Shown here piece by piece: positions 40,492-64,000 of a stretch of DNA of 64,000 nucleotides (positions within the stretch are counted from its first letter, which is position 1; each line of letters opens with the position of its first letter). A program made the translations under genes and the position numbers. The DNA is from a virus, in IMG/VR virus record IMGVR_UViG_3300049893_002454, positions 61,546-125,545 of that record. One strand, given 5' to 3'. Below the pieces are notes generated by a model that made no database searches, was not told the DNA's origin, and saw nothing but the letters and a program-made list of their open reading frames with translations.

Positions 40492-41976
40492 ATGTTGGAT
40501 TTAACAGAAGTCTTTTTTAATATTGAAAATATTTCAAATAAAGACATTATCCTTTTTGGAAGCTATCGGCTGCGTCCAGGGGCCAAGGCAGATCTTTTCA
40601 AAGTTATACCTAATCTAAGCGAATCTCGGATAATCGACGCACTACGCTCACCTAGTGGCGAATTATTCGTATTTAGCGAATTACAGAAAAAGATAATCAT
40701 TCATGATTTTAGACTTACCTCACTTGACAGTGCGCGCGTAGGTGCTAAGCATATTGTGTCGAATAATGTCCCTGAACGAGGGAAGGTATTAGGTTTCGAT
40801 GGAGCAATGCTTAAGTGGGTTAGTGGTGGTGGCGGGCATTTTGACGTAGAGGCTCCGTTGGTACGCGAAGCTGATACACTGCGTATTGATCGTGCGGGTC
40901 CGCATACATCAGGATATCTTAGCAAAGAGGACTGGCTAGCATTTAGCAATATTACTACTGGATTTAGAATATGGCAATACTACGACCTGCCCGCCAATAT
41001 CGGAGTAAAATGCAAAATAGCATCGTTTAATACTGCATCGATACCGTTTAATACCGGATCTATTGTAAATGGCAGCGCTGTAATCGTAAATGCATCTACT
41101 CTGTCCGCTCCTGGAAAATCACGATGGAAGATTCTAGGATCTAAATCACAGATTGTAGTTACTCAACATATTGGAGATGAGGTGCTATTAAGTGCTGCCC
41201 CTAAAGCAGAAGAATTATGTAGATTATACTTCTTAGTGTGCTTGCCTGCCGGAGTTGATGTGCCGGATAGCTACTCTGGTGCCCCGGACTATGTACGTCA
41301 GCTACGCGCAGAATATTTTGATTTTATAGACCTTAATAGCTCTAAGACAGAATTAATAAATGGCACGAAAACTTTTAAGTCACCAGTTATATTTGAATCA
41401 GATCAGCAGATTAATCAAAGTTTAACTGTTGCTGGAAAAATTACAGCTCACTCAATAACTTTAAATGACGCACCTCAATCATATCACGTACTAACATCTT
41501 CTGCAATGGGCAGCGGCACTTGGCAAGCCAATCCAACAGTATCACAGGGACCTCCGTTAAACTGCTATGATGGGCAGTTGTGGGTTAGGACCCCAGACTT
41601 TGAGTTATTTGTATATGATGGTACTAGAACTAGTTGGCTAAGCGTAGCAGAGCGCTCTATAAGCGCTTGGTCAACTCAGACCCTTGCACATATGTACCTA
41701 GCGCAGGGAGGGGGCTCTACGTGCAATATACTGCCTCTAAAGAGCACTCTTGTTGGTATGGTGGCATCTAGCAGTCCAGGCTCATCATGGACTGCAGAAG
41801 TACATATTAATAATTCTATCATACCCGGTGCATTTATTAAAGTTGGCGAGGACGGTAGAGGATTCAGCAATAATCTGTCCGTGCCATTTAATCAAGGAGA
41901 CCGTATACAATTCTTTGTAAATGGTCATATGATTGACAATCCTAAGATTGAAGCAATCTTCAAGAAAAGCTTTTAA
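40492..41976 (+). CDS. Fibre or baseplate-associated structural protein A
   Basis: The protein has 494 residues from the ATG at 40492, which follows GGAG. It shares an N-terminal plan with the next gene: FNIENISNKDIILFG..LRPGAKADLF, a helical patch, KIIIHDFRLTSL, then SGYLSKEDWLAF near residue 140, and a beta-rich core beginning FRIWQYYDLPA. The segment SxGYLSxxDWxxF is common in phage tail fibres just after the anchor domain. The C-terminus has a PPLNCYDGQLWVRTPDFELF segment, then a beta-rich end. It opens the fibre block and is probably an adhesin or its base. Confidence 0.65.
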   Translation: MLDLTEVFFNIENISNKDIILFGSYRLRPGAKADLFKVIPNLSESRIIDALRSPSGELFVFSELQKKIIIHDFRLTSLDSARVGAKHIVSNNVPERGKVLGFDGAMLKWVSGGGGHFDVEAPLVREADTLRIDRAGPHTSGYLSKEDWLAFSNITTGFRIWQYYDLPANIGVKCKIASFNTASIPFNTGSIVNGSAVIVNASTLSAPGKSRWKILGSKSQIVVTQHIGDEVLLSAAPKAEELCRLYFLVCLPAGVDVPDSYSGAPDYVRQLRAEYFDFIDLNSSKTELINGTKTFKSPVIFESDQQINQSLTVAGKITAHSITLNDAPQSYHVLTSSAMGSGTWQANPTVSQGPPLNCYDGQLWVRTPDFELFVYDGTRTSWLSVAERSISAWSTQTLAHMYLAQGGGSTCNILPLKSTLVGMVASSSPGSSWTAEVHINNSIIPGAFIKVGEDGRGFSNNLSVPFNQGDRIQFFVNGHMIDNPKIEAIFKKSF

Positions 41977-41990
41977 CCGGTTGGTGAGTA

Positions 41991-43613
41991 GTGGCTGTAA
42001 AATTCTTCAGGCCTAAGCTTATAGTTGAAAATATTTCCCATAAAGCGGTCAGGCTTTTGGGCCTTACAACTATTTTACCTGGTGAAACAATAGATCTTTT
42101 CGATCAGGTGGAGCAGCTATCTCTGTACGAAGATCTTATCCTAAAGGCTCTTGAGAAGCCATGGGGCGATCTTTATAATGAGGTCGTTAATAAAAGAACT
42201 TTAGTTATTCACGATCTGGTATTATCAAGCTTTTACTATGGATTGGTGACACCTGATAATATTATTGCCGATAATAATTATTTTCCAGGCGCAGTTCCAG
42301 CAGTAGTTAACTCCGATACATTTTCCTGGATAGCTCCATCGATTGCCTTCGCTCAATCTCCTTTAGAAATATCGTCTGGTGTAATTTCGATTCCAAAGGC
42401 AAGCGCCACTTCAGACGGTTATTTATCCAAAGAAGACTGGCTATTATTTGCTGGAAATACAAAGCCGGCCATGAAGATATGGCAGTATCAAGATTTCTCT
42501 GCCCCGGTATCTACGAGCCTAACTCTTACGGCCTTTCAGAATGGCACGGGATTATCATTCAACGCATCGTATATACTTAATGATACAGCTCAGATAACAA
42601 TTAGCAGCAATAGCTCAGTACCTCCTACAACTACACTTTCATTTCCAGCCAGATATCTTCCATCCAATCGAGTTACTGTATCATCTCATGTAAGCACTAC
42701 AGTCATTCTAAGTGCAGCTCCAGACACATCACTCTCATGTAGAGTATATTTTTTAATTGAGTTGCCACCAGGCGAATCATTACCCTCAGGATACCAAGAG
42801 GATCCAGAGTTTCTTAATGACGTTAATTTAGAATTTTTAGATGATAACTATGTTAACCAGAATCAAGATGAAGACATTTATGGAAAGAAGACGTTTATAT
42901 CTGAGACTGTGTTCAACAATAGTGTTGGCATAAATGTAGCCTCTCCAGCAGCTGATTTAGATGTATTTGGGCTCATTCAGACTACATCACTTCGTATACC
43001 AACAGGAGCTTCCGACGGATACTTCTTTAGATCTGATGGATATGGATTAGGTTCATGGGCACCAATTCAGGCTGCTGGCATTACAGACCACGGATTGCTC
43101 TCCGGTCTTAGCGATGATGACCATCCTATTTATCTCAGAGTTGATGGAGCCAGGCCTATGGCCGGGGCATTGGATATGGATGGATACTCCATTCTATCAG
43201 CGCAGTTGGATGGGATATTGTATTTTCGAATGCCAAGCGGAGCAGTGGATGGCTATGTACTTACATCTAATGCGCTTGGCGAGGCAAGCTGGCAGCCTAG
43301 TGCATCAATGATTGGGTCGGGGATCTCTGAGACTCAGCATGAAAACTTAGATACGTTGGTGCATAATCTAGCAGAAACGTATTTTGAAGAAATAATTACT
43401 GTGGGCGGCAAGGTGACTGCTGTAATCGATTGGACATCTCCTGCTAAGATATTAAAGATCAGAGAATTTCAATACTCATATAATGGCACTAAAATATCAC
43501 AGGAGATTGCAATTCAATATGACGGTTCTGGTACTGAGGTCCAGCGGCTAACGACTGACTTTAATTATGTCGGAAGTTCTATAGTCTCTTCTACCACTAC
43601 GGAGATACCATAA
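41991..43613 (+). CDS. Fibre structural protein B, paralogue of the previous gene
   Basis: The 540-residue protein starts at GTG 41991 after GGTGAG. Its first 270 residues parallel the gene at 40492: VENISHKAVRLLGLTTILPG with ETIDLF, TLVIHDLVLSS, DGYLSKEDWLLF, KIWQYQDFSAP and CRVYFLIELP. After that it has fibre modules: NNSVGINVASPAADLDVFGL, HGLLSGLSDDDHPIYLRVDG and a C-terminal beta-sandwich-like end. Five DGY tripeptides occur. The pair likely arose by duplication and forms two fibres or two parts of one. Its stop overlaps the next start by one base. Confidence 0.7.
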   Translation: MAVKFFRPKLIVENISHKAVRLLGLTTILPGETIDLFDQVEQLSLYEDLILKALEKPWGDLYNEVVNKRTLVIHDLVLSSFYYGLVTPDNIIADNNYFPGAVPAVVNSDTFSWIAPSIAFAQSPLEISSGVISIPKASATSDGYLSKEDWLLFAGNTKPAMKIWQYQDFSAPVSTSLTLTAFQNGTGLSFNASYILNDTAQITISSNSSVPPTTTLSFPARYLPSNRVTVSSHVSTTVILSAAPDTSLSCRVYFLIELPPGESLPSGYQEDPEFLNDVNLEFLDDNYVNQNQDEDIYGKKTFISETVFNNSVGINVASPAADLDVFGLIQTTSLRIPTGASDGYFFRSDGYGLGSWAPIQAAGITDHGLLSGLSDDDHPIYLRVDGARPMAGALDMDGYSILSAQLDGILYFRMPSGAVDGYVLTSNALGEASWQPSASMIGSGISETQHENLDTLVHNLAETYFEEIITVGGKVTAVIDWTSPAKILKIREFQYSYNGTKISQEIAIQYDGSGTEVQRLTTDFNYVGSSIVSSTTTEIP

Positions 43614-44272
43614 TGAGTGGAGTAATAGTTCTAAATCAACTATCTGCTGAAATAGTTAGTGCTGATGGTTATTCCGCAGTTGTTCTTTCTGGCAACTCTC
43701 TAGATAATGAAACTAGTGGAGTGTTGTTAGCAGGTACTGATGGTTACACTGTAAGTTTCATACGCACAAATTCAGACGGAGTACTGCAGATAGATCCAAT
43801 CGGTACTACTGTTCAGCCCATTTCAGGAACGGTTGCATCTAATCAGAGTGGGATATGGTATGTAAGGCTGACTGATGGTTACGGTAATCCAGTATTGGTA
43901 CGTACTAGTGCCGCACAGGCTGGCGATCCTGGTGTAGTTGTACGCGTAGCTAGCTCTACTACTGATGGATATGTCGCATCCTTATTAGACAGAAGTAAGG
44001 CTAATACTGCCTCTAGGACTACGGTAGCAAATACTACAGTAGCGACCACAATACTTTCAAATAATGATCTTAGGAAGGGTGCTACCATTTATAACAGCTC
44101 TAATAAGTTATTATATATCGCCTTTGGGCCTGTAGACGCTACACTTGCTAGCTTCACTGCACTGATAGCTACAAATGGATACTATGAATTGCCCTATGGA
44201 TTTACTGGACGCATTTCTGGCATATGGGGGGCTTCCGGTAGCGGAGGAGCTCTAGTGACGGAGCTAACATAA
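43613..44272 (+). CDS. Virion protein with conserved C-terminal fibre domain, 219 aa
   Basis: The N-terminal 120 residues are beta-rich and contain four DGY tripeptides. The C-terminal 80 residues (TTVANTTVATTILSNNDLRK, IYNSSNKLLYIAFG, YYELPYGFTGRISGIWGASG, TEL) match the plan of a widespread phage structural domain seen at fibre or virion protein ends, which I recall but cannot name exactly. The one-base overlaps at both ends place it in a tight series with the fibre genes. It may be a fibre tip or a connector. Confidence 0.65.
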   Translation: MSGVIVLNQLSAEIVSADGYSAVVLSGNSLDNETSGVLLAGTDGYTVSFIRTNSDGVLQIDPIGTTVQPISGTVASNQSGIWYVRLTDGYGNPVLVRTSAAQAGDPGVVVRVASSTTDGYVASLLDRSKANTASRTTVANTTVATTILSNNDLRKGATIYNSSNKLLYIAFGPVDATLASFTALIATNGYYELPYGFTGRISGIWGASGSGGALVTELT

Positions 44273-44619
44273 TGCCATACTTTCCTCCTACGCCAAGGTC
44301 TATATATATTACCGCAGATGATATCCCGGCTGGCAATATAACTCTCTTAGATGACGGGTATTGGGCATCTGGATATGTTTATCTTGACTCAATTCACGTA
44401 GAAACAACATCTACTGATTGGGATTTATATTTATGTCAGGATAGCTCCTTTAACATTAGCGATATTACAACAATTAAGTTGGTAGCCAATGGGCTTGGAA
44501 GTAGCGTCGTTCCAGTCAATATATCATACGACAGTCTAGACGGCAATGTATTTCTTGTCTATGAAAATAATGTAGGTACATCTAATGTGTCGCTATACAT
44601 CGTAGGTAGAACTCTTTAG
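44272..44619 (+). CDS. Small virion protein, 115 aa
   Basis: The protein is beta-rich, with many Tyr, Asp, Val and Ile, and no charge runs. Segments such as DDGYWASGYVYLDSIHVETT and DWDLYLCQDSSF alternate polar and hydrophobic residues, typical of a beta-sandwich. It closes the series 40492-44619 before a 50-base gap with a TACTAATA box. I do not recognise a family. A fibre accessory or capping role fits the context only. Confidence 0.55.
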   Translation: MPYFPPTPRSIYITADDIPAGNITLLDDGYWASGYVYLDSIHVETTSTDWDLYLCQDSSFNISDITTIKLVANGLGSSVVPVNISYDSLDGNVFLVYENNVGTSNVSLYIVGRTL

Positions 44620-44621
44620 CA

Positions 44622-44629
44622 TACTAATA
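44622..44629 (+). promoter_or_regulatory. TACTAATA box, candidate phage promoter
   Basis: The octamer, followed by TTAATTC, lies 41 bases before the gene at 44670, in the first gap of more than 40 bases in the fibre block. It shares sequence with 34873, 40434 and 56274. Confidence 0.35.
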
Positions 44630-44669
44630 TTAATTCACATCTTAGATATTTAGACTTGGAGGATTTAGC

Positions 44670-46787
44670 ATGGCAATAGCTGATGACTTTAGCATTTCTG
44701 CTACTGGCGATATTAGATATACTGGCACAGGAAGTAATTATTCTGTTATTTCATTTCACCGATGGTTGGGCGATCTTATGGATGACGCTCAAGCTTCAGG
44801 TAATGATATTCTTGATATTACCGATGCTACCGCTTCAGAGCGTTCGACTGATAACATCATCACATTAAATTCTCCATACAATATCGACAATACTGCGGCT
44901 CAGCATCTCTATGACGGTTCCATTATACAGGATAGCGGTAACACCATCTATGATGGCATCGTCTGCTTTTCTGCTCCAGGTACATATCTGCAGATTATCC
45001 AAAACGGTCGCCCAGCATCTCCAAATTTCTGGACTACTGGTCTAAACGCTGATGCTAATAACGGTATTAGCCATCGGTTCATGATAAAGGTCAGGACTGG
45101 TGGTGCGGATATAGATGGCCGTCGTATTCTTGGTCAAACTCGTGTATTTAATCAGACTTATTCAGAATTCCGTATTAATGGTACGTCGCGAGGTAATAAC
45201 GTACTAGCATTAACCTATGCTACAGATCTTAATAATCAAACTTCTGAACCAACAGTAGAAGGTTGGACTGGCATAACAAACACTCAGGGATATCGCCTTC
45301 TAGATGTCGACAATGATGGGTTCACCGAGCCATATTACTCAGAGTGGAATAAGGACATTTACACCATAAATCAGCTTTATGAGCGAACTAAATGGCTGAG
45401 TCGAACTTCCACGGAAGAAGATGGTTACAGTGGCACAGCGACTGATTATCCAGTAGGTGACGGAACGACTACTAGGCAAGCACAGTCATTTAGAAATGGC
45501 CCTGTACCTCAGAATCTAACACGTGTAATTGCTAGACTTAAAAAGTTTGGTACGCCAACGGGTAATCTTACGGCAAACTTATATGCGATTAGCGGTACTC
45601 ATGGAAGTACTGCGGTTCCAACCAGTAGTGCTCTGGCAACATCAGTAACGTTCGATGTAAGCCAACTTACGACATCATACTTACAATATGAGATTGCATT
45701 TAATACGCAATATAATATGATCGCTGATGGCTATTACGCTATATCATTTGAATATAGCGGTGGAAATGCATCTAATTATGTTCAGATTAGCGGTTCAAGT
45801 ACGGGCAGTCACGCTGGTAATAAATCTAGCTTTGCTGGAAGCTGGACCGCACAAGCATCAGAGGATCTTTGGTTCAAGTGCTTTGCCTCTCCATTACTAT
45901 ACGGTATTACCGGAGAAGTATTTAGAGGTATAACTCACGAAATTGAACTCGATGGTCCCAGTGGCACATTCTCATCGTGGGCCCCGGTATCATGGCCATC
46001 GGGCACAGGGCAGATGCTCGCTATTAACTCTACTACTGCGCCAAGCAAGATGTGGATACAGTTACTGACAGGCGTGGCCCCAATAGACAATCAGATAATT
46101 ACTGATGGGTACACTTCGGCCACCGCAACAGTAAATGTAACTGTCACTGAACGAGCACTATCGTTTCCATTTATCGGAGCCTCGACCGGTTCAGCTATAA
46201 TAGGCTCCTATGGCCTAGGTATAGAGACTTCCGATCTGACCGCTAGCGATCGTCTATTCGATCTAAATAATACATCTCGAGTGCCACCTAACAATGTGTC
46301 ATTCACTGTTAGCGGACTGGTAAGCGGAGAGGATCGGGTTCTAGTCGGGCCAGGTAACGGAGGTCTCCTACATACAAATCAATTATCTCTTAGCACTCCT
46401 CTGACTGGTGGGGCAGAAACAGCAGTTGTTGTATCTACAACAATACCTCTCGATACACCGTCATCTGGCACTATTAGAGTTCAGTTAAATAGCGGTATAT
46501 ATCGCAGATTAGCTTACTCATCATTCCTAGGATCAACATTTACCTTAACAGCCTCGACTGACTTTACCGGAGATAATGCTAGCGCGGCCAATAATGTATT
46601 TATTAGCTATATCGATAAGGTTGCTTCGGCTACTAGCGAAAGTTTCACTGTAGTTTTCCAATCTACACGTTCACTATTTGTGCGCGTGCGCGACGGCGGC
46701 GCAAGTCCGATTAAAACGTTCGAGACCACAGCATCACTCGGATCTGGTGGAGGCTCTGCTACGGCAATTAGAACCTCAGATGCGTAA
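44670..46787 (+). CDS. Large virion structural protein, 705 aa
   Basis: The protein starts after a good GGAGG site. The first 200 residues (MAIADDFSISATGDIRYTGT, then SFHRWLGDLMDDAQ, LYDGSIIQ, FWTTGLNADANNG, HRFMIKVRTGGADIDGRRIL) match a family of phage virion proteins that I recall from large phages without a precise name. A carbohydrate-binding or jelly-roll-like region follows (about 270-420), then a beta-rich C-terminus. Three DGY tripeptides occur. It is probably a surface-exposed tail or fibre component. A functional partner cannot be read from the sequence. Confidence 0.6.
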   Translation: MAIADDFSISATGDIRYTGTGSNYSVISFHRWLGDLMDDAQASGNDILDITDATASERSTDNIITLNSPYNIDNTAAQHLYDGSIIQDSGNTIYDGIVCFSAPGTYLQIIQNGRPASPNFWTTGLNADANNGISHRFMIKVRTGGADIDGRRILGQTRVFNQTYSEFRINGTSRGNNVLALTYATDLNNQTSEPTVEGWTGITNTQGYRLLDVDNDGFTEPYYSEWNKDIYTINQLYERTKWLSRTSTEEDGYSGTATDYPVGDGTTTRQAQSFRNGPVPQNLTRVIARLKKFGTPTGNLTANLYAISGTHGSTAVPTSSALATSVTFDVSQLTTSYLQYEIAFNTQYNMIADGYYAISFEYSGGNASNYVQISGSSTGSHAGNKSSFAGSWTAQASEDLWFKCFASPLLYGITGEVFRGITHEIELDGPSGTFSSWAPVSWPSGTGQMLAINSTTAPSKMWIQLLTGVAPIDNQIITDGYTSATATVNVTVTERALSFPFIGASTGSAIIGSYGLGIETSDLTASDRLFDLNNTSRVPPNNVSFTVSGLVSGEDRVLVGPGNGGLLHTNQLSLSTPLTGGAETAVVVSTTIPLDTPSSGTIRVQLNSGIYRRLAYSSFLGSTFTLTASTDFTGDNASAANNVFISYIDKVASATSESFTVVFQSTRSLFVRVRDGGASPIKTFETTASLGSGGGSATAIRTSDA

Positions 46788-46793
46788 TATATT

Positions 46794-47240
46794 ATGGCAG
46801 GCATATTATTCTTTTTTGAAGATAATGATATTGATATATTCTCTGGTCGGAGACTCGATCTTTCGGCCTGGAATTATGCCATTAAATCTGCGGGAGATAT
46901 TACTAAGGTAATTATTGTCAATAGGACATCGCTTCAAATTTCTACATTTGACTCAGATCTAGAATACTTCTTAGTAACCAAAGATTTACCACAGCTAGAT
47001 GGTAGCATAATACACGTAGTATGTCCCTGGGATAATACATGTAATACAGTAAGTTTATGGAATTATGAGCACAGTGCTGATTGGTATTTATTTGGCCCGG
47101 CCAAGGGATGGAAAGAGTACGGTAAGTTGTCAAATGGATTAACTATTCCAGTGGCAAATAATATTGCATTCCATTCTGTTCATGCGGCATCAATCGTTAT
47201 GGCCCATCGCTATGGAGTTAATAAATGGCAGCACCGGTAG
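46794..47240 (+). CDS. Hypothetical protein, 148 aa
   Basis: I recognise no family. The protein is mixed alpha/beta with many aromatic residues (FFFEDND, SAWNYAI, WNYEHSADWYLFGPAKGW). It starts six bases after the previous stop, with a poor ribosome binding site, and overlaps the next gene by 16 bases, so translation is probably coupled. The aromatic content would suit a carbohydrate-contacting or virion surface protein. Confidence 0.5.
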   Translation: MAGILFFFEDNDIDIFSGRRLDLSAWNYAIKSAGDITKVIIVNRTSLQISTFDSDLEYFLVTKDLPQLDGSIIHVVCPWDNTCNTVSLWNYEHSADWYLFGPAKGWKEYGKLSNGLTIPVANNIAFHSVHAASIVMAHRYGVNKWQHR

Positions 47241-49060
47241 TTTCATTTGTAGGAACCAAGGCCGTTAATGGTGAAAGCACCACTACTTATGTAGGAGGAT
47301 CGGTTGCTCTGAATGCCGATAATGTGCTAGAGGGGTCAAACTCTGTAGGAGATAAAGTCTCTGCCGCTACCGTGACTACCTATGCATTAGGTGCTGCTGT
47401 TACCGGCGAGCCTTTCAACTTCTCTTCAGGAGGGGCAAATCAATTTGATCACATATTTATGATCACTCAATTGCAGGGCTCAGTTGATACGCTTGCAAAT
47501 GGTGGGGTTGGAATTGTGGTGGCGGATGATCTTGCTACTGATAGTGTTGGAACGTGGTATGTTGGTCCCAAATCAGGGTATCTAGGTGGCTGGGTATATT
47601 ATGTTATAAATCCAGCAAGGGCTTTCGACACAGTCACTGCCGGCTCTGCTTCCTGGACGACAACTGGAAATCCTGCTCAATTATCAGGAGTAGATGGATT
47701 GGGTGTAAGGTGGAAGATTCTTAATACAATAATGGGTGCGTCAGATAATTGCTTCTTAGACGTTATGTCTGTTGGTACTGGTTATAGTATAACTAATGGC
47801 GATGCAGGGTCAGCAGAAGGTAAATTTAGTGATTTCTCGACATATGAGGAGTCGTCTTCAAATCGCTATGGCGCACTAGAGACCAAATCCGGAATTCTAT
47901 TCCCGCTATGCAAATTATATATAGGAGCATCATCGGGTTCAACTAATACCGAATTTATCGATAGTGGGTTTACTGTAGTGTGGCAGGATGCATATGTAGC
48001 TAGTGACTTCTATGGTCTCATATGTCGGCAAGGGACCGGCACGACAGACGTTCAGTTATCTAGTGGTATATTTAAGGCTGCCGGCTCTACTGAGGTATAT
48101 CTTGATTTTTCCGGAGTAGCAAATGTAGATTTGACTAATATAAATGTTGAAAGGGCAAGATTAATTGATCTGGATGTGAACTGTACCTGGACTGGTGGGC
48201 AAGTAGTTAATTCTGGTATGGTTGAGCTATTCGGCGCGGCGGCTATAACGGCTGTAGACTTCCTGAGATGCACTGATGGATACCAATTAAAGATTACAAA
48301 TAATTCTTATATGGATAATGTAGACAATATATCGTTTACCTCTGGCGGTACAGGACATGCTATATGGATTACTGCCACTGGAACATATTCATTTGATAAT
48401 ATCGTATTCTCTGGTTATGCTGGTTCCGATGGATCTACTGGAAATGAGTGTGTATTTAATAATAGTGGAGGAAGTATTACGATAAATGTAAATGGTGGTA
48501 CATCTCCGACTATACGCAATAGTGCAGGTTCAAGTACGACTGTAAATGCCGGATCAGTGTCAGCTACCGTTACTGTAGTAGACACAACTATCACTCCCAT
48601 TCAGTCGGCTAGAGTCCTGGCATTAGCCGCCTCAGGCGGGCCAATGCCATTCGATGTTACAGTTACTATAGTGAACTCTGGCACTACGGCAACTGTAACG
48701 CATACGAGTCACGGATTAAGTACTAATGATAAGGTTCAGATAAAGGGTGCTAGTCATTATCAGAACAATGGGGTATTTTCTATAACCAAAACAGATAATA
48801 ATACCTATACGTATACGATGCCATCTGCACCGGGAAGTAATCCTACAGGTACTATCAAAGCAACATTTGCTGTATTATCAGGAATGACTGATATTAATGG
48901 ACAAATTACAATGTCAAGAGTATTCCCATCAGATCAGCCAATTGCAGGTAAGGTGAGAAAATCAACCTCGTCCCCACTATATAAAACCACTACATTTGTA
49001 GGAACAGTTGATAGTTCTACTGGACTTACTGCGACTTTGCAAATGATTTCTGATGAATAA
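47225..49060 (+). CDS. Probable beta-helix fibre protein with C-terminal Ig-like module
   Basis: The 611-residue protein is beta-strand-rich with short repeats of Asn, Gly, Ser and Thr, as in beta-helix fibres (about residues 190-450). Near the C-terminus, residues about 475-545 (VTIVNSGTTATVTHTSHGLS, NDKVQIKGASHYQNNGVFSI, NTYTYTMPSAPGSNPTGTI) match a module common in phage tail proteins, with HGLS..D.V.I.GA..YNG.F.I. One DGY occurs. It is probably a receptor-binding or surface protein. Its start lies within the end of the previous gene. Confidence 0.6.
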   Translation: MAAPVVSFVGTKAVNGESTTTYVGGSVALNADNVLEGSNSVGDKVSAATVTTYALGAAVTGEPFNFSSGGANQFDHIFMITQLQGSVDTLANGGVGIVVADDLATDSVGTWYVGPKSGYLGGWVYYVINPARAFDTVTAGSASWTTTGNPAQLSGVDGLGVRWKILNTIMGASDNCFLDVMSVGTGYSITNGDAGSAEGKFSDFSTYEESSSNRYGALETKSGILFPLCKLYIGASSGSTNTEFIDSGFTVVWQDAYVASDFYGLICRQGTGTTDVQLSSGIFKAAGSTEVYLDFSGVANVDLTNINVERARLIDLDVNCTWTGGQVVNSGMVELFGAAAITAVDFLRCTDGYQLKITNNSYMDNVDNISFTSGGTGHAIWITATGTYSFDNIVFSGYAGSDGSTGNECVFNNSGGSITINVNGGTSPTIRNSAGSSTTVNAGSVSATVTVVDTTITPIQSARVLALAASGGPMPFDVTVTIVNSGTTATVTHTSHGLSTNDKVQIKGASHYQNNGVFSITKTDNNTYTYTMPSAPGSNPTGTIKATFAVLSGMTDINGQITMSRVFPSDQPIAGKVRKSTSSPLYKTTTFVGTVDSSTGLTATLQMISDE

Positions 49061-49069
49061 GGATTATTT

Positions 49070-49300: not shown

Positions 49301-49301
49301 T

Positions 49302-54540: not shown

Positions 54541-56030
54541 TGCCAGTAGAGATTATTGATTATGTGTACCCGAAGAATAACGGCACCTTTCCAACTCACG
54601 ATGCAGCATACGGAAAAGGGGGGTATCTATCAGTAGCGGACGTTACTGCCAGAAATGCAATAGCAACTGCCCGCAGAACAGAAGGTATGCGCGTACGCAC
54701 AAATGACACTGGAATGGAATGGATACTAACATCTGATTTGCTTACCTGGGTACAGGCGCCAGGAAGTACACGGCAAGACATTATTTCAATGGCCGGCACT
54801 GTGATTGATATATATGTTGATATAAGTGGTGATGACGGGTACGACGGACTTTCGTATGCAACAGCATACAGGACTATTCAAGCAGCAATAGATTCGATAC
54901 CAGAGAATCTCTATACTATTTATGGCAAAAGTGTAAATGTACATCTTGGTACAGGAACATTTAGCAAATTCACGCTAAATAAAAAAGGTGTCTATATTAA
55001 AATTATAGGTGACAGAAGAAGCCCTTTAGAGACATGGGAATATGGAAGTAAGTCATTTTCAATAGTCAGCGGATACACTCACAGAGCGAGTACCACCATA
55101 TCTGCTTGGACAGGAACAGTAGATGAGACTACACATTGGTTAGAACTAGATTACTCATCATATGGTGGTCCAACAGATAATATCTCAGCATTATGTGTAC
55201 TCAACAGCACGAGCCCAACATTGCATGCTACGGCAGGGTTCACCGGAGATGACAGTATAGCACTACATCCCTTTCTATCAACTATAGATGATGAAGGAAA
55301 CCAATTTGAATTGTATGCCGATGATACATCAAAAATTGAACTAATAGGTGTTAAAATATTAAGCTCGAATGCTACATACTTTAAAAGAGTACTTATGTGG
55401 GGATGTTACTATTATAATACAATTGGAGCACTATATTTATTAGGATATAGCGGAGGTTCTATAACATTTGACGGCACCTCCAGCAACTCAGGAAGTGTGG
55501 TAATCGTAGATGGATTTTTAACAGGATGCGTCATAAGACAAAGGGCCTTAACGGTAAACTCATATGGCGGTACATTATTAGCATCAATTAGCAGTATAAC
55601 AGTAAAAGGGGCATTTACAGCTGCAGGCATAGTGATCGAGTCGCGCTGTAATATCAGTGATATAGATAATGAGACGCAGCGTCAGGGTATTACAGTACAA
55701 TATGATGGTATCTTGGAGATGACAAATGCTGGTAATGGCATAAAAATACAGGGGACCCCAACCAGGGCATTAACAGTAAATGATGGTGCAATAGTTAAAT
55801 TAATAAATAATGCCAGCAGACGATTTTCAGGAGCCATTGCCGGAGTACCGGTAGTTATTACCAGTGGTACCGTAATAAATGCAAAGGCATGCTGCAATAC
55901 ATTTCTAACAAATAGCTCTACACCAGGAAATGAAATAACAGTTGGGGCAAATGCTACTACAACCTTTGCTGCTCAGCCAACAACTGATCTAGCACTGGGA
56001 AATACATCAACAATGTCGAGGGCCACATGA
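54540..56030 (+). CDS. Pectate-lyase-like beta-helix protein
   Basis: The 496-residue protein has an N-terminal region ending DISGDDGYDGLSYATAYRTI then QAAIDSIP (about residues 97-125). This is the usual entry to right-handed beta-helix depolymerases and tailspikes. Repeated beta turns follow to about residue 440 (SGYTHRASTT, GYSGGSITFD, GGTLLASISS). No catalytic pair can be assigned by eye. The start at 54540 overlaps the previous stop. It may cut or bind host surface polysaccharide. Confidence 0.65.
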   Translation: MPVEIIDYVYPKNNGTFPTHDAAYGKGGYLSVADVTARNAIATARRTEGMRVRTNDTGMEWILTSDLLTWVQAPGSTRQDIISMAGTVIDIYVDISGDDGYDGLSYATAYRTIQAAIDSIPENLYTIYGKSVNVHLGTGTFSKFTLNKKGVYIKIIGDRRSPLETWEYGSKSFSIVSGYTHRASTTISAWTGTVDETTHWLELDYSSYGGPTDNISALCVLNSTSPTLHATAGFTGDDSIALHPFLSTIDDEGNQFELYADDTSKIELIGVKILSSNATYFKRVLMWGCYYYNTIGALYLLGYSGGSITFDGTSSNSGSVVIVDGFLTGCVIRQRALTVNSYGGTLLASISSITVKGAFTAAGIVIESRCNISDIDNETQRQGITVQYDGILEMTNAGNGIKIQGTPTRALTVNDGAIVKLINNASRRFSGAIAGVPVVITSGTVINAKACCNTFLTNSSTPGNEITVGANATTTFAAQPTTDLALGNTSTMSRAT

Positions 56031-56236: not shown

Positions 56237-56273
56237 CGGGATTTCTAATTCATACATAATGGCCATACATAGG

Positions 56274-56281: not shown

Positions 56282-56317
56282 AATAACACATATACCAGTT
56301 AGCTTACCTGGGGTTCT

Positions 56318-59300
56318 ATGGCTGGCACAATATACCCATTGGGCATAGATGGATATGCCCAATTACCACTCATCTATGATCTAATAAGTCCAGTGCGCGC
56401 GGATGATATAAATCGCGTTCGCACTGCAGTAGTAGCTGTAGAGACTGAGCTTGGTATAAATCCTAGCAGCACACATGGAACTGTGCGCTCTCGTTTAGAT
56501 GCCCTTGAAAGTGGTATAGGCGGAGCAGGTGGGGCCTATTTAATTACTGATCCGGGTGATTTACTCACGCGCAATAGCACAGACTTAGCTAAACTAGCTG
56601 TGGGAGCAGACGGCTATCTTCTTATCGCAGATTCTACTCAAGATACGGGCCTAAGATGGGGCACTGCTACAGGAGAAACACCAGACTTTATAAGTGCTCA
56701 CATAGAGAGCCCTACGAATAAAGAATACTTCCTCGTCCTCTACTCCCCATTTGCTGGATTCATAGAATCCATAACAACACAATCAAGTTCTGGCACATGT
56801 AGACTAGATGGCTATATTGACGGCACAGTGCTAGGAGGAACATACAATTCAGTCTCATCAGTCGAAGAGACACAATTACATGCCACAGATAATAGTTTTA
56901 TTATTGGACAGACAATATCAATAATAATATCACAGAACTCTACGTGTACTGATCTAAGATTTACAATTAAGTTTATTCGAGACAACTATGTAGGCAATTC
57001 TGGCGAAGCAAATACAGGTGCAAATATTGGGGCCGGAGGCGTTGGACTATTTAAACAAAAGTCTGACCACATACTTCAATTTCGTAATATAAATGCAGGT
57101 TCATCGAAGATATCTGTTGCACTTGATTCTCCAAATAACGAAGTAGATATAGATGTCGTAGAGGCGCAACTTACCCTTAATAATATTGGAGGGACACTAT
57201 CAATTGCAAAGGGAGGCACTGGACAGACTAGCGCATCAAGTGCATTCAACTCTCTCAGTCCAACTACTACCAAAGGAGACCTGGTAGTTAGAGATGCTTC
57301 TACAAATACACGCCTAGCTATAGGCACAGATGGGTATGTGCTTACAGCAGACTCTGCCGAAAGTACTGGTATAAAGTGGGCCCCGCAAACAGGGTCTGGG
57401 GGAGGAGCTCCTGCAAATGCGCAATATGTCACACTAGTAGCCGACGGTACATTGACACAAGAACGTATATTAACTGGAACAGCCGGGCAGATTGATATTA
57501 CTGACGGCGGTGCCGGAGCAGCGGTCACATTAAGCATGGCCGCTACTGGAGTAACTCCAGGCGTATATTCGCAACCGCAATTAACTATAGATACACAGGG
57601 TCGAATTACCGCTGCTGCTGACGGTTATGCAGCTCCAGTTAATGCACAATATTTAACATTAGCTACAAACGCCACATTGACACAAGAAAGAGTTCTTGTG
57701 CCAACCGGAGGAGAGCTGACACTGACAGATGGTGGCGCAGGAGGCAATGCAACTATAGCACTCGCTACTACCGGAGTTAGCCCAAATACTTATGCCTTTG
57801 CTACAATAAGCGTTGATTCTAAAGGCAGAATTACATCAGCATCAGCAAATAGCGCAGCTAATTCAGCACTATCAAATCTTACCACCACAAGCATAAATAC
57901 ATCGCTACTCCCAGCTATAACAGACGGTTATGATATTGGCTCTCCGACACTTAGATGGCAAGATCTACATCTGACACGTACTATACAAACAGTCCGTAGC
58001 TCAGGAGTAACGGAACATAGTGGCTCAGTATATTCAAATATAGCATCAGAAGCACATGCATTCTCACACTACAGAGCGGAGGGAACAGAAGCACTTCCGG
58101 CAGAAGTGTCTGTAGGGGATATTTTAGGAAGACATAATTTCTACGGTTTTGATGGCGCAACCTTTAATATTGGTGCACAAATTGAATCTATTGCAGACGC
58201 AGTGTGGAGTGGTTCTGACTTTGGCACTACGCTAGATATAAAAACTGTTTCAGCAGGTAGTACTACACTATCAAGTAGAATAGCCATTGATTCTTCGGGT
58301 ATGGTTGGTATAGGTACAACCTCACCTGTCTATAATTTACATGTTGCTGGAGATGGATACTTCTCTGGCTTTGCACGCGTAAGCTACACGGCAGCATCAC
58401 CGGCCACAGCAGGTGCGGGGGCCATACGTTGGAGTGGCACGGAAATTGAGTACAGCGATGGCTCTATATGGGTATCTACTGCCACGCCATCAAATGTCGC
58501 AAATAGATATCTTTCAAATCTATTAGTTACATCAATAAATACAGATCTTATTCCAGCAGAAGATGATGCATACAGCCTTGGCTCTCCTACATACAGATGG
58601 AAGGACGGATACTTCGGTCCATCGTCGCTACACCTGATAGCACTTCCGTCGGAGACAGACGGTTTTATAAACTCTCATTGGGCATTAGAAGTGCTAGATG
58701 ATGGTTATCTAGCGTTTAATAACAATGTTGAAATTAAAGCTAGAATTTCTAGAGATGGCTATGTTATTCCAAGCGCAGGATTTATTTTTCCTGACGGAAC
58801 CAAGATGGTCACGGCTGTACCACAGGTTTTCGCTGCTGGAACCTCCGGTGCAATACAATTTAATAATAATTCTAGTTTTAGCGCAGACAGTACAGCTCTG
58901 TACTGGAATATATCAGAAGATCAGCTAGGACTTGGTACAAATACTACAAATGCTAGACTTACAGTTGATGGGTATATCTCGCTCAGCGAGCAATCAGAGT
59001 CTCCTCCTCCAACGTCATCATATGGAAAGATCTACGTTAAACAGTCTGACTCGCGAATATATTATGGGGATGATTCCGGCCAAGAACACTATTTAACACA
59101 TGATGGCTACGAAGTAATTGCATGGGCAGCATCAATTGCGCTAAATCTAAGTCCGTCATTGCCATTACAGCGCACTATTACGTTAGATGGTGTGGCTACA
59201 GCTACAACAATCAGCTCTACAATAAATAGAGGAGTAGGTAGAAGTCTGGTACTGCGCATGCTTGCCGGAGCAACAACACACACATTATCATGGCCGCCTA

Positions 59301-60463
59301 GTTGGAACTGGTTAGGAGATGCATCTCCATCTTCACTGACGGCAGGAAACGTAGCCATATTGACCATCATATCATATGGTGTGGCAGAATCAGATATAGT
59401 TGCTTCATGGGAATATGAAGGAGCATCTACAGCACTTACAGGGTCAGGCTCATCAGGAGCGGTAGCATTCTGGAATGGAGCAACATCATTAGCACAAGAT
59501 GCTGCAAGTTTCTTCTGGGACGATAGCAATAATAGATTATCAGTCGGAACAAACACTCCATCAACCGCAGTACATGTGTTAACTAATGCCAATGACGATG
59601 GTATTTGGGCGCAAAATGCTACAGACGGATATTCGGTAGGACTGCATGCCAGAGCTACTAGTAGCGGAGGTTTGCGCGGCATAGGTATCAGAGCACATGG
59701 GCCAACCACTTCAGGAACCTTTCTTGGGTCAACTACTAACAATAACGTCACTATTGCAGCATACGGAGCTGAAACAACAGCAATAAAAGTCGGCACAGAT
59801 CTCGATGCCATACCTATTATATTTGGAAATAGGTCGTCTGCAAATGGGGAGAGCATTGGGCAAGAGCGTTTGCGTATAGCTGCAGATGGTAGCGTAGTAG
59901 TAAATGAACAGGGATATGAACATGTAAATTTCCGTGTTGATGGATACAACAATGCAAATAGACTGGTTGTCGCAGCTTCATCAGGCAGAGTCGGAATAGG
60001 CACCGATAGTCCCAATGAAATTCTAACTGTCACAGGCAAGATTTCTATAGTATACACCACATCTCCTACTGCTACAGATGGATACGGAAAGTTATATCCA
60101 AAAGCATCTGACGGATATCTGTACTATATGGATGATGATGGTAATGAATATAATCTCATTACCGCCAGTTTAGTCGGGGTAAAAACTCCGATCACTAACG
60201 TATCTACAAATCATACCATCACGTTATTAAACGGCACCATTATTGTCGATGCTTCAGTAGGCCCAGTAACAATAACACTCCCAACAGTGTTATCTGCGAA
60301 TGAATATATATTTAGGGTCAAGAAGAAAGATGTAAGCTCAAATGCTGTTATTATAGATGCCGCTGGTGCAGAAACTATAGATGGGGCATCCACATATTCA
60401 CTATACACACAGTATGAAACTATTACTGTACAGTCTGATGGAACACAATGGTGGATTATCTAG
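56318..60463 (+). CDS. Giant tail fibre, 1381 aa
   Basis: The protein is a mosaic of fibre modules. It includes DINRVRTAVVAVETELGINP near residue 30, SPTTTKGDLVVRDASTNTRL then TDGYVLTADSAESTGIKW, two copies of a TSIN..L.P....LGSP..RW segment (near residues 530 and 735), GYGKLYPKASDGYLYYMDDD and a C-terminal beta domain ending in a TLPTVLSANEYIFRVKKKDV stretch and YETITVQSDGTQWWII. Such ends are common in phage fibres. It holds about 16 DGY tripeptides. No chaperone or enzyme motif is visible. It is probably a receptor-binding fibre. Confidence 0.75.
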   Translation: MAGTIYPLGIDGYAQLPLIYDLISPVRADDINRVRTAVVAVETELGINPSSTHGTVRSRLDALESGIGGAGGAYLITDPGDLLTRNSTDLAKLAVGADGYLLIADSTQDTGLRWGTATGETPDFISAHIESPTNKEYFLVLYSPFAGFIESITTQSSSGTCRLDGYIDGTVLGGTYNSVSSVEETQLHATDNSFIIGQTISIIISQNSTCTDLRFTIKFIRDNYVGNSGEANTGANIGAGGVGLFKQKSDHILQFRNINAGSSKISVALDSPNNEVDIDVVEAQLTLNNIGGTLSIAKGGTGQTSASSAFNSLSPTTTKGDLVVRDASTNTRLAIGTDGYVLTADSAESTGIKWAPQTGSGGGAPANAQYVTLVADGTLTQERILTGTAGQIDITDGGAGAAVTLSMAATGVTPGVYSQPQLTIDTQGRITAAADGYAAPVNAQYLTLATNATLTQERVLVPTGGELTLTDGGAGGNATIALATTGVSPNTYAFATISVDSKGRITSASANSAANSALSNLTTTSINTSLLPAITDGYDIGSPTLRWQDLHLTRTIQTVRSSGVTEHSGSVYSNIASEAHAFSHYRAEGTEALPAEVSVGDILGRHNFYGFDGATFNIGAQIESIADAVWSGSDFGTTLDIKTVSAGSTTLSSRIAIDSSGMVGIGTTSPVYNLHVAGDGYFSGFARVSYTAASPATAGAGAIRWSGTEIEYSDGSIWVSTATPSNVANRYLSNLLVTSINTDLIPAEDDAYSLGSPTYRWKDGYFGPSSLHLIALPSETDGFINSHWALEVLDDGYLAFNNNVEIKARISRDGYVIPSAGFIFPDGTKMVTAVPQVFAAGTSGAIQFNNNSSFSADSTALYWNISEDQLGLGTNTTNARLTVDGYISLSEQSESPPPTSSYGKIYVKQSDSRIYYGDDSGQEHYLTHDGYEVIAWAASIALNLSPSLPLQRTITLDGVATATTISSTINRGVGRSLVLRMLAGATTHTLSWPPSWNWLGDASPSSLTAGNVAILTIISYGVAESDIVASWEYEGASTALTGSGSSGAVAFWNGATSLAQDAASFFWDDSNNRLSVGTNTPSTAVHVLTNANDDGIWAQNATDGYSVGLHARATSSGGLRGIGIRAHGPTTSGTFLGSTTNNNVTIAAYGAETTAIKVGTDLDAIPIIFGNRSSANGESIGQERLRIAADGSVVVNEQGYEHVNFRVDGYNNANRLVVAASSGRVGIGTDSPNEILTVTGKISIVYTTSPTATDGYGKLYPKASDGYLYYMDDDGNEYNLITASLVGVKTPITNVSTNHTITLLNGTIIVDASVGPVTITLPTVLSANEYIFRVKKKDVSSNAVIIDAAGAETIDGASTYSLYTQYETITVQSDGTQWWII

Positions 60464-60471
60464 GATAACAT

Positions 60472-63400
60472 ATGACATATAACCCAAATACGCGAACTAT
60501 TCATGATTATTCAAAAGAGCCAACTGGATTTCCAGACAGGACGAGTACTTCAATTGCATTCAATAATGGAACTCGCACATTAACAGTATACCCTACAGGA
60601 AGCTCTTTCGATTATTACATACAGGGAGTGAGGTATACTCATCTCGGGCCAGCAGAAACAACGATCTCAGATACAGAAGGTCTCTGGTATATATATTTCG
60701 ATGGATATACTCTTCAAAATACACAAACATTCACTACAGATATAATCACACGATACGCATACGTCGCTGTGCTATATTGGGATTCAGTAAATAACGATGC
60801 AATATATTTAGGAGAGGAGCGACATGGGCTGACGATGGATGGTCAGACTCACCTATATTTACATAATAGTGTCGGAGCGGTGTTTATAAATGGATTTGGG
60901 TTGGCAGACTTTCAGATAGACGGCACTGGTGACAGTTCTGCTGATGGATACTTTTCAGTAGGGAATGGGATATTCCATGATGAAGACATTAGGCATACGG
61001 TAACAGACGGGTCTCCTCAGGACCTCTATCCGATATCGTATTTGCCAGTCTTTCATCGTACTGGCTCAGATGGATACTGGCGAGCTAAAGACGCCAATGC
61101 ATTTCCTGTAATTTATTCAGGCACAGCGGGCTATACTGGAGCAAATGGAAGGCTTCCATACAATCAATGGACAGGGTCTATATGGCAGTTAACGCAAGTT
61201 ACAAGTGGAAACTATGTCTTAGTTCATGTGATAGCCACGAATGATATACTAAATCCAATTATTGCATTGCAAGGGCAAGCAGAGTATGCGAATATATCAC
61301 AAGCCAGAACAGGCGCAACTACAGAACTTGCTAGCATAGCAGGATTACCATTTTCCGAAACAGTTGCATTAGGTTCAGTAATCTACCAAACCTCAAATAC
61401 CTATACTAATTTAATAAAAGCCAGAATTGTAAGTACTGATACCGGTAGCAACTATGTTGATTTTAGGAAAGTAAGCTCATTACCATCTAATCAAATTAGC
61501 GATCACGGAAATCTATCAGGATTAAGCGATCCAGATCATCCAGCAAGCGCCATATTTACGTCGACGTCCTCTTTCAATGGGATACTTAGTGGTTCAAATA
61601 CCACAGTGCAATCAGCACTCGATACACTAGATAATCTAAGTATAGCGCAGATCTCGCCACTAACAACCAAAGGAGATTTACTTACAAGAGATGCCTCAAC
61701 TCATGTGCGAGTGGGAGTAGGTACAGACGGTTATGTGCTAATGGCAGACAGTACAGTATCATCAGGTATAAAATGGGCCGCCAGTGCAAATACAGCGCTC
61801 TCAAATCTAACCACCACATCAATAAACCAGTCATTACTCCCATCAACAGATATAACATACAATCTCGGCAGTCCAAGTAAGCGATGGAAAGATGGATACT
61901 TTGGACCATCATCATTACACATAACTTCATTAGCATCAGAAACTGGCGGAACAGCCAAAGATTGGTCTATTGGCATAGGTTCAGATGGATATATGTCAGT
62001 ATACGACGGCGGGTCACGTAGACTCGCTATCACACCTGATGGATATGTAGCACTGCGTAAATCTGGCGGAAAATTTAGTGCTTTTGATGAAAATAGCAGA
62101 GATGTAAAGTTCGCCACTAAATTCAATAGTATCACTAGCCAATATGGTTTAGGGCAAATGTATAATGAGACTTGGATTGGTGCTATAGATGATGGTTACG
62201 GTAAGATAGGATTCTATACTTCGCTACCCAATAATGGAATTTCTTCAGCTACAACAAATGCTGATATGTATGTAAAAACCACTGGCGTAGAAATTAAAAA
62301 TAATCTATTAGTTAACTCGACAACGCTTTTTGCTGATTCGGTTAACAATCGCGTAGGCATCGGTACTATAACTCCCACAGAAAGACTTCACATAGTAGGA
62401 GGTAATGCACTTTTTGGCGGCACGATAAGCTCTCCAGGAGCAGGAACAAGTTCAGAGAGATTTGGAGCACTATCAGCTGCAGCAGGAAATAATAGTGTAT
62501 CTATTGGCAATGACTCTACTTCTACAGGAGCCAGCTCAGTAGCGCTCGGATATAGCGCAAACACATCATCAAATGCTTCATCAGCAGTAGCAATAGGATC
62601 ACAATCAGAGTCGCTATCAGCAAATAATGTAGTTATCGGAGCTTCTGCTAACACTTCCACTAATACTGGAAACTCAGTAGCCATAGGATATAACACTACA
62701 ATATCAGCATCGGCGAATGCCTCAGTCGCAATTGGTGCCCAAACAAATATAACTACAGGAGCCTCTTCTTCAATAGCCATAGGTTATGATTCAACTGCAT
62801 CTGGGGTATATGCTGTAGCTATTGGAGAGAGTGCAATAGCCAGCGGAACTAGATCATTAGCCATAGGTAGAAATGCAAATGCATCAGCAACAGCATCGAT
62901 CATGATTGGCTTTGATGGATATGCTGATGCGCCGAACACATTTGCTAGCGGCTCAACAGCATTTCCAATAAACAGCATATATTTCGGCAAAGGAATTAGC
63001 AGCCCCTCACCGACAACATATTCAATTAAAGGGACGGCCGGATCAGCAGATGGTTATGTCGGCGGCGGAATAAATATAGATGGGGGATTGGGAGGCAGTG
63101 TAGCAACTGCTGGTGGCGAAATAAAGATAAGGACCGCTGCCGCAGGCACAGGAACAACTCTGGTAGATAGAGTTACTGTCGCTGCTAGCGGCACTATTAC
63201 TATAGGAAGTCATTTTGATTTAGCAGAGATCACAGCACCATCAACCCCGTCTACAAATTTTGGCAGCCTATATGTAAAATCAAAGGCTTCCACAAACTCA
63301 ATTTATTTCAAGAATGATGCTGGGACGGAATTTGATCTAACTTTAGATGGTTATACTGGCAGTAATATTGGCGAAACAATTACTGGTGGAACAGTCGGGT

Positions 63401-64000
63401 CCATATTATTTGTCGATACTGGACCGGTAATTGCTCAAGATAACTCTAATCTTTTCTGGAATAATGGAACTAATAGATTAGGATTAGGTACATCAGATCC
63501 ACAAGAACAATTACATGTAGCAAATAATATACGTACTGATGGCTTTATACAGCTAGCTGAGATTGCAGCCCCGGCAACACCTGCTACTGGCTTTGGTCGA
63601 ATTTATGAAAAGACCGATGGTTATTTATATTTCAAGAACGATGATGGTACAGAATTTGATTTAACAGCAGCATCAATGGCTATTGGAAATACTATTACAA
63701 GTGCTACAGCTGGAAGTGTTTTATTTGCTGGTGTATCAAGTGTTCTAGCTCAAGATAATTCTAATTTCTTTTGGGATGACACCGATAATTGTCTACGTAT
63801 CGGTGCTAATTCTGGAAGCAGCACTGATCGATTAGATGTATTTGGAACTGTTAATGGTACATCAATAGCAATCCGTGCCACAGGGGCTAGCACTTCTATT
63901 GGATATCGACTTGTCAATTCTACTTTATCTTATGAGTCTCAAGTAGCTATGGCTGTCACCGCTAATGATTGGACAACAAATTCTGTAGCAGGAGACTTAG
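60472..64000 (+). CDS. Giant fibre with YadA-like head repeats, cut by the window end
   Basis: The frame is open from ATG 60472 to the last base (1176 complete codons) with no stop, so the C-terminus is missing. Its order is: an N-terminal beta domain, DHGNLSGLSDPDHPAS, SPLTTKGDLLTRDASTH, TSINQSLLPSTDITYNLGSP then KRWKDGYFGPSSLH, then a block (about 62490-62900) of about nine repeats of the form SVAIG (SVALGYS, AVAIGSQ, SVAIGYN, SIAIGYD, SLAIGRN) as in the head of YadA-type trimeric adhesins. More fibre modules follow. About 12 DGY occur. It is probably a trimeric, host-binding fibre. Confidence 0.8.
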   Translation, partial: MTYNPNTRTIHDYSKEPTGFPDRTSTSIAFNNGTRTLTVYPTGSSFDYYIQGVRYTHLGPAETTISDTEGLWYIYFDGYTLQNTQTFTTDIITRYAYVAVLYWDSVNNDAIYLGEERHGLTMDGQTHLYLHNSVGAVFINGFGLADFQIDGTGDSSADGYFSVGNGIFHDEDIRHTVTDGSPQDLYPISYLPVFHRTGSDGYWRAKDANAFPVIYSGTAGYTGANGRLPYNQWTGSIWQLTQVTSGNYVLVHVIATNDILNPIIALQGQAEYANISQARTGATTELASIAGLPFSETVALGSVIYQTSNTYTNLIKARIVSTDTGSNYVDFRKVSSLPSNQISDHGNLSGLSDPDHPASAIFTSTSSFNGILSGSNTTVQSALDTLDNLSIAQISPLTTKGDLLTRDASTHVRVGVGTDGYVLMADSTVSSGIKWAASANTALSNLTTTSINQSLLPSTDITYNLGSPSKRWKDGYFGPSSLHITSLASETGGTAKDWSIGIGSDGYMSVYDGGSRRLAITPDGYVALRKSGGKFSAFDENSRDVKFATKFNSITSQYGLGQMYNETWIGAIDDGYGKIGFYTSLPNNGISSATTNADMYVKTTGVEIKNNLLVNSTTLFADSVNNRVGIGTITPTERLHIVGGNALFGGTISSPGAGTSSERFGALSAAAGNNSVSIGNDSTSTGASSVALGYSANTSSNASSAVAIGSQSESLSANNVVIGASANTSTNTGNSVAIGYNTTISASANASVAIGAQTNITTGASSSIAIGYDSTASGVYAVAIGESAIASGTRSLAIGRNANASATASIMIGFDGYADAPNTFASGSTAFPINSIYFGKGISSPSPTTYSIKGTAGSADGYVGGGINIDGGLGGSVATAGGEIKIRTAAAGTGTTLVDRVTVAASGTITIGSHFDLAEITAPSTPSTNFGSLYVKSKASTNSIYFKNDAGTEFDLTLDGYTGSNIGETITGGTVGSILFVDTGPVIAQDNSNLFWNNGTNRLGLGTSDPQEQLHVANNIRTDGFIQLAEIAAPATPATGFGRIYEKTDGYLYFKNDDGTEFDLTAASMAIGNTITSATAGSVLFAGVSSVLAQDNSNFFWDDTDNCLRIGANSGSSTDRLDVFGTVNGTSIAIRATGASTSIGYRLVNSTLSYESQVAMAVTANDWTTNSVAGDL

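What the first reader, a model, noticed from the sequence alone, without database searches (positions are those of the whole stretch)
40492..64000. Massive enrichment of the tripeptide Asp-Gly-Tyr in the fibre block
I count about 48 DGY tripeptides by eye in the fibre genes, 16 in one protein and 12 in the next, but only a handful elsewhere. Codons vary at all three wobble positions, so selection seems to act on the peptide, not on a DNA repeat. Several sit where related fibres have Gly-Gln, Gly-Thr or Gly-Lys in known modules (for example VLTADS and LGSPxxRWKD). This suggests repeated convergent or copied change to Tyr after Gly, perhaps for trimer packing, ligand contact or modification.
Basis: seen in the sequence. 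Interest (0 to 1): 0.72.

Follow-up and report, generated by a model that had tools for sequence, protein, structure and literature searches.

The report
Phage tail sugar-tag motif, Asp-Gly-Tyr
The tail fibres of this uncultured phage and its relatives are peppered with one exact three-residue word, Asp-Gly-Tyr, which behaves like an address label for attaching sugars, and these phages carry sugar-attaching enzymes of their own, so it may be a viral code for coating tail fibres with sugar.

Summary
After Asp-Gly, Tyr follows 48 of 102 times. NGY, EGY, DGF and DGW are not enriched: the word itself is selected. The close relative G001 and two other phages (G002, G003) show it too; 17 fibre-module relatives and 30 bacterial loci do not. 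DGY has sequon-like properties: no flanking consensus, almost no proline after Tyr (3 of 733 against 4%), preference for indel-rich loops, site turnover, confinement to tail proteins. The genome encodes a glycan cluster. In related phages a GT4 glycosyltransferase lies just downstream of DGY-rich tail genes: 64 of 66 testable GT4 loci show at least 3-fold DGY. Best explanation: DGY is an acceptor site for glycosylation of tail fibres by phage enzymes, probably on Tyr; attachment is inferred. Against: the window's GT4 is not in the tail-linked clade, and the 116-kb relative G086 is DGY-rich without a detected GT. Trimer packing fits poorly.

The parts
41991..43613 (+). fibre gene, 540 aa, 5 DGY (codons at 42414, 43014, 43035, 43179, 43248)
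43613..44272 (+). fibre-block gene, 219 aa, 4 DGY
44272..44619 (+). fibre-block gene, 115 aa, 1 DGY
44670..46787 (+). fibre-block gene, 705 aa, 3 DGY
47225..49060 (+). fibre-block gene, 611 aa, 1 DGY
52744..54540 (+). fibre gene, 598 aa, 5 DGY; homologous to G001 (68% best segment) with DGY gained and lost between the two
54537..56030 (+). fibre-block gene, 497 aa, 1 DGY
56318..60463 (+). large fibre, 1381 aa, 16 DGY in 30 DG; 76% identical (best segment) to a gene of G001
60472..63999 (+). large fibre, at least 1176 aa, open at the window end (which is the contig end), 12 DGY; YadA head repeat (PF05658)
40480..41976 (+). first gene of the block, 498 aa, 0 DGY (internal contrast); 70% identical to G001

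Best explanation
DGY, not followed by proline, is an acceptor sequon on the exposed loops of tail-fibre and baseplate-periphery proteins. A glycosyltransferase encoded by the phage recognises Asp-Gly-Tyr and puts a sugar on it, most likely on the tyrosine hydroxyl. Other phage enzymes supply and extend the glycan. In the tail-linked relatives the best candidate is the GT4 gene next to the DGY-rich tail genes; in the window's phage it is one of the GTs at G000:2402-10903. The likely benefit is a changed or shielded virion surface. Shown: the word, its exactness, its confinement to tail proteins, its loop and indel context, the proline exclusion, the GT gene neighbourhood and the glycan cluster in the same genome. 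Inferred: that a sugar is attached, which residue carries it, and which enzyme does it.
For: Exact word: pooled tail proteins upstream of GT4 have 733 DGY against 44 expected, NGY 1.4x, DAY 1.3x, DGF not among the six highest; other genes of the same loci 34 against 36. Proline at +1: 3 of 733 against 308 of 7,665 for other Tyr (p 2e-9; homologous sites are not independent) and 45 of 1,114 after DG-not-Y; 0 of 243 in G000-G003. Loops: 77% of 70 DGY near indels against 31% of 84 DG-not-Y, flanks less conserved; 12 of 13 in coil. Turnover: 23 sites in 11 homologues, only one of them in 10. GT link: GT4 found in 16 DGY records; of 80 GT4 loci, 64 of the 66 with a new upstream gene of at least 500 aa show 3-fold or more DGY, median 16x; 70 of 80 tail-family loci have GT4 within 3.7 kb and the other 10 end within 2.8 kb. 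Own genome: GT4, further GTs, GDP-mannose dehydratase, UDP-GlcNAc 2-epimerase, UDP-glucose dehydrogenase family, nucleotidyltransferase, methyltransferases. Controls: 17 fibre-module relatives 1.04x, 30 bacterial GT4 loci 1.08x. The terminase relative G004 has few DGY and neither GT4 nor GT2. The closest solved fold to the GT4 model is a chlorovirus glycosyltransferase, 3oy2.
Against: No glycan has been seen. In the GT4 tree the window's GT4 and that of G001 group with bacterial GT4s, not with the tail-linked clade, so the two are not one clearly shared enzyme. G086 (116 kb, same lineage as the window) has 63 DGY and no GT4 or GT2; G084 and G085 are similar. All are linear, possibly incomplete records. 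The gene neighbourhood is a shared synteny, so its loci are not independent, and terminase relatives of the window occur in tail-linked GT4 records, so the groups are distant kin. In G001 the GT4 lies about 100 kb from the fibres on the contig. GT-bearing cultured phages checked (immuto, EGole, Magritte) lack DGY enrichment.
Confidence: 0.58

Rival explanations
1. DGY is a modification site, but for another chemistry or another supplier: Tyr sulphation, phosphorylation or similar, or glycosylation by the host, with the phage glycan genes serving something else such as DNA hypermodification or host surface change.
For: Same sequon evidence. G086 has DGY without a detected GT. A sulphotransferase-family gene sits in the G017 cluster.
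Against: No sulphotransferase among the G000 cluster genes scanned with Pfam or the 10 of G002. The GT4 next to the tail genes is the constant partner.
Confidence: 0.2
2. DGY is a structural turn or packing element of phage fibres (Asp-Gly turn followed by an aromatic), kept by selection on folding or trimer contact, as the first reader leaned to.
For: Many sites replace another DG-x turn at the same position.
Against: NGY, DGF and DGW not enriched. Sites prefer indel-rich, weakly conserved loops, come and go between relatives, and occur in non-homologous proteins. Control fibres that share modules show none.
Confidence: 0.1
3. Exposed DGY tyrosines bind the receptor or another ligand directly.
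For: Fibres bind receptors, and aromatic residues can stack on sugars (established knowledge); loop position.
Against: Also in baseplate-periphery genes. Trp and Phe, usual in such contacts, are not used. Proline exclusion after Tyr is not expected.
Confidence: 0.06
4. Spread of a DNA unit or copied modules explains most sites.
For: Fibre modules are shared between G000 and G002 (56% over 296 aa).
Against: 14 different 9-mers, background codons, no off-frame or reverse copies in the block; 44 distinct contexts.
Confidence: 0.03

Closest known systems
Bacteroidetes general protein O-glycosylation, sequon D(S/T)(A/I/L/V/M/T...) (PMC8698959, passages read)
   Same: A strict three-residue word beginning with Asp on many proteins, served by a glycan gene locus.
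   Different: Ser/Thr acceptor and a cellular system; here Gly-Tyr follows Asp and the genes are viral. Not tested whether any enzyme is shared.
Tyrosine O-glycosylation of bacterial S-layer proteins, for example Paenibacillus alvei SpaA (PMC2943079, passages read)
   Same: Sugars on tyrosine of surface proteins, with a GT4-family enzyme in an S-layer pathway (WsaF).
   Different: Few sites and no DGY word in the passages read; cellular proteins.
Mycobacteriophage virion glycosylation (Freeman 2023, PMC10527164; not held, known here from its citation in PMC12619734)
   Same: Phage-encoded GTs modify virion proteins.
   Different: There the glycans are at C-termini of capsid and tail-tube subunits; here a dispersed tripeptide in fibre and baseplate proteins.
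Chlorovirus autonomous glycosylation; GT B736L, PDB 3oy2 (sequence match, fold match; papers seen as search listing only)
   Same: Virus-encoded glycosylation machinery; the GT4 fold model matches 3oy2 best.
   Different: Algal viruses; an abstract seen describes N-linked glycans on the capsid.
Moraphages, large aquatic phages with four core glycosyltransferases (PMC12619734, passages read)
   Same: Large uncultured phages with GTs in the core genome and baseplate genes.
   Different: The passages read give no target motif; whether they are the same phages was not tested.

Membership tests
Protein glycosylation sequon system | short strict consensus, neighbours of the word not enriched | tested here: met
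Protein glycosylation sequon system | proline excluded next to the acceptor | tested here: met
   3 of 733 against 4%; 0 of 243
Protein glycosylation sequon system | sites in exposed loops, with turnover | tested here: met
   one protein family and one model only, exposure itself not computed
Protein glycosylation sequon system | cognate glycosyltransferase in the same genome | tested here: inconclusive
   present in G000-G003 and in most GT4 loci; absent from the incomplete record G086; window GT4 not in the tail-linked clade
Protein glycosylation sequon system | sugar covalently attached at the site | not testable with these tools
   needs mass spectrometry
Glycosyltransferase family 4 (GT-B fold) | Pfam Glycos_transf_1 match and GT-B fold | tested here: met
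   PF00534 1.2e-11; model pLDDT 92, listed PDB matches are glycosyltransferases and glycogen/sucrose-phosphate synthases of that fold
Bacteroidetes D(S/T)x O-glycosylation | Ser or Thr after Asp | tested here: not met
   the enriched word is DGY
Tandem pentapeptide GYDxDGYD repeats seen in other records | regular five-residue spacing | tested here: not met
   sites dispersed, distinct contexts

The most novel reading that the evidence does not exclude
A widespread group of uncultured phages, many with genomes above 200 kb, runs its own protein-glycosylation code: a strict Asp-Gly-Tyr-(not Pro) sequon for tyrosine O-glycosylation scattered over fibre and baseplate proteins, read by phage-encoded GTs encoded near the tail genes, so that glycan sites can be gained and lost by single-codon changes to tune the tail surface.
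Probability: 0.45. Interest if true: 0.85.

Novelty: new variant of a known kind. Interest (0 to 1): 0.72.

Why it matters
Phage virion glycosylation has been reported, but I found no sequon for it in print (searches). A readable code would let glycosylated phage proteins be predicted from sequence alone, would connect the glycosyltransferases of large phages to a concrete target, and would bear on fibre-receptor recognition and on how fibres change their surface by point mutation. It also offers a simple test: mass spectrometry on DGY peptides.

Tried and rejected
DNA motif: rejected. Composition or shuffling: rejected. Calcium loop D-x-D-G: only a few tail-protein sites sit in dockerin-like loops; flanks elsewhere show no such pattern. 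Record-level association over 50 records from the triple-DGY scan: 11 of 19 DGY-rich records have GT4 against 4 of 31 others (Fisher p 0.001), with a cut-off I chose myself. It is confounded, because several DGY-rich records without GT4 are tandem pentapeptide repeats (G010, G015, G019) or fragments of the same lineage (G016, G028, G030), as one search showed. Two unrelated lineages: I first read G002/G003 as unrelated to the window, but one search showed terminase relatives of the window inside tail-linked GT4 records, so I dropped that claim. A homologue of the tail protein without GT4 as natural knock-out: none found. Pfam and PHROGs on the fibres themselves: almost nothing. Tail-protein fold search: no match below 0.001, only its dockerin part at the top. 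(last fibre in viral contigs): nothing. Genome scan with the GT4 alignment: mostly bacterial GT4s; a 3-kb contig in a Thioploca bin falls inside the tail-linked clade and may be a phage fragment.

Full report
OBSERVATION. The 14 ORFs from 40480 to the window end hold 48 DGY in 7,393 aa, 16 and 12 of them in the last two proteins; 36 upstream genes hold 6 in 12,837 aa. Composition predicts 1.78 in the block. Tyr follows Asp-Gly 48 of 102 times, but follows other Gly only 24 of about 617 times. Leaving out the 48, Tyr (about 3.4%) and DG are near ordinary levels, so the excess is in the whole word. All 48 DNA matches are in frame; none is off frame or on the minus strand within the block; codon use at the sites resembles the background. 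As a look-elsewhere control, the best tripeptide in 49 control loci reaches 1e-11 (Ser-Gly low complexity), against 1e-44 for DGY here.

WHERE ELSE. The window is the last 64 kb of a 125,545-base virus record, G000. A close relative, G001 (76% best-segment identity to the 1381-aa fibre; 142 kb), and two other records, G002 and G003 (97 and 96 kb, with baseplate genes), show the same word as their most enriched tripeptide of at least 8 copies: 21, 69 and 94 copies in their fibre or DGY-bearing genes, 17 to 22 times expectation. In G000-G003 NGY, EGY and DGW stay low. Seventeen loci that share fibre modules but lie in other phages show 13 against 12.5 expected. No INPHARED phage matches the fibre block at DNA level or the tail-linked family at protein level. 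Cultured phages with distant GT relatives (Flavobacterium phage immuto, Streptomyces phage EGole, Microbacterium phage Magritte) have no DGY excess to speak of (1 to 4 copies); the Microcystis phage region is 2.4x with 5 copies.

THE GLYCOSYLTRANSFERASE LINK. An all-against-all comparison of G000-G003 genes showed, besides fibre modules and a few other shared genes, one gene present in all four: a GT4-type glycosyltransferase (G000:2402-3532; G001:103860-104990; G002:66382-67545; G003:94677-95903). In G002 and G003 it follows the DGY-bearing baseplate-side genes. In G000 it opens a cluster with GDP-mannose dehydratase, UDP-GlcNAc 2-epimerase, several GT2- and GT4-type enzymes, a UDP-glucose/GDP-mannose dehydrogenase family protein, a HAD/nucleotidyltransferase fusion, methyltransferases and two further epimerase/dehydratases. 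In twelve further DGY records the same GT4 was found, usually next to the DGY-rich tail gene.

REVERSE TEST. A scan of viral contigs with the GT4 alignment gave 80 loci (109 relatives in all, best 80 kept). Counting tail genes of at least 500 aa upstream of the GT, each protein once, 66 loci could be tested; 64 show at least 3-fold DGY, median 16-fold. The other 14 of 80 were truncated or duplicates. Pooled, these tail genes hold 733 DGY against 44 expected, and the remaining genes in the same loci 34 against 36. Thirty bacterial loci with GT4 relatives show 20 against 18.6. Conversely, of 80 loci found through the 950-1,350-aa tail protein, 70 have the GT4 within 3.7 kb; the other 10 end within 2.8 kb of the tail gene. 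This is one conserved gene order, so the loci are not independent.

SEQUON-LIKE PROPERTIES. Single-residue neighbours of DGY are near expectation (NGY 1.4x, DAY 1.3x, DFY 1.4x; DGQ 2.8x and DGK 2.3x are the highest), and flanks have no strong consensus. Proline directly after Tyr is nearly absent: 3 of 733, against 4% after other Tyr, after DG-not-Y or after any residue, and 0 of 243 in G000-G003 (G002 and G003 overlap in part with the first set). In 11 homologues of the tail protein, 77% of 70 DGY lie near alignment gaps, against 31% of 84 DG-not-Y, and their flanks are less conserved (0.40 against 0.54); the sites fall in 23 columns, most in a minority of sequences. In a model of one family member (mean pLDDT 84, 50 sequences) 12 of 13 DGY tyrosines are in coil (13 of 24 for other Tyr), several in loops around or below pLDDT 50. 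Solvent exposure was not computed.

MECHANISM. The pattern is what a modification enzyme's recognition word would leave: exact, short, independent of flanks, proline-averse, in loops, on tail proteins only, with turnover. The constant partner gene is a GT4 whose model (pLDDT 92) matches GT-B enzymes, best a chlorovirus glycosyltransferase, 3oy2, and also PglA. I therefore favour glycosylation of tail-fibre loops by phage-encoded enzymes, on Tyr by inference. Tyrosine O-glycosylation of bacterial surface proteins is known (PMC2943079, passages), and a three-residue Asp-first sequon is known in Bacteroidetes (PMC8698959, passages).

AGAINST. No sugar has been seen. G086, a 116-kb record of the window's own lineage, has 63 DGY and no GT4 or GT2 detected, and G084 and G085 look similar; all are linear records that may be incomplete. 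G002 has no GT2, leaving GT4 as the only GT detected there by the models used. I first thought the two groups unrelated; a terminase search showed relatives of the window's terminase in tail-linked GT4 records, so they are distant kin.

NOVELTY. Phage virion glycosylation is reported for mycobacteriophages (known here through the citation in PMC12619734), and large phages with several core GTs have been described there without a target word in the passages read. Seven searches of the held library found no DGY motif or phage tail sequon (listings only). I file it as a new variant of a known kind, with the reservation that the chemistry is unproven.

Noticed in passing
window 37916-38995: A GIY-YIG/HNH-type homing endonuclease gene (PHROGs) just upstream of the fibre block also carries 3 DGY, in its repeated segments; it is not a virion protein by annotation.
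   Followed up: no
L037 3-2402 (G000 start, outside the window): An 800-aa ORF made of imperfect repeats of about 20 aa (EYWVEGKRHRTDGPA), directly before the GT4 gene; shorter relatives occur in G001 and G002.
   Followed up: no
L112 (G010), L138 (G015), L103 (G019): Tandem pentapeptide-like repeats GYDxDGYN, up to 48 DGY in one 1713-aa ORF, unlike the dispersed DGY here; they contaminate any DGY-density scan.
   Followed up: partly
L391, L392 (Flavobacterium phage immuto): This cultured phage has a large GT cluster and its structural proteins are enriched in Ser-Gly-Ser (61 copies, 4.7x); low complexity or possibly another modification word.
   Followed up: no
G001:101785-102711: A second GT4 copy next to the intact one, with two in-frame stop codons.
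   Followed up: no
L182 3636-6608 and homologues: The conserved tail protein contains a dockerin-type calcium-binding domain (PF00404); several DGY sit in its loops.
   Followed up: partly
window 51216-52034: A 272-aa gene inside the fibre block reads like a patatin-type phospholipase (GTSGG motif, recalled; only a PHROG of unknown function matched).
   Followed up: no
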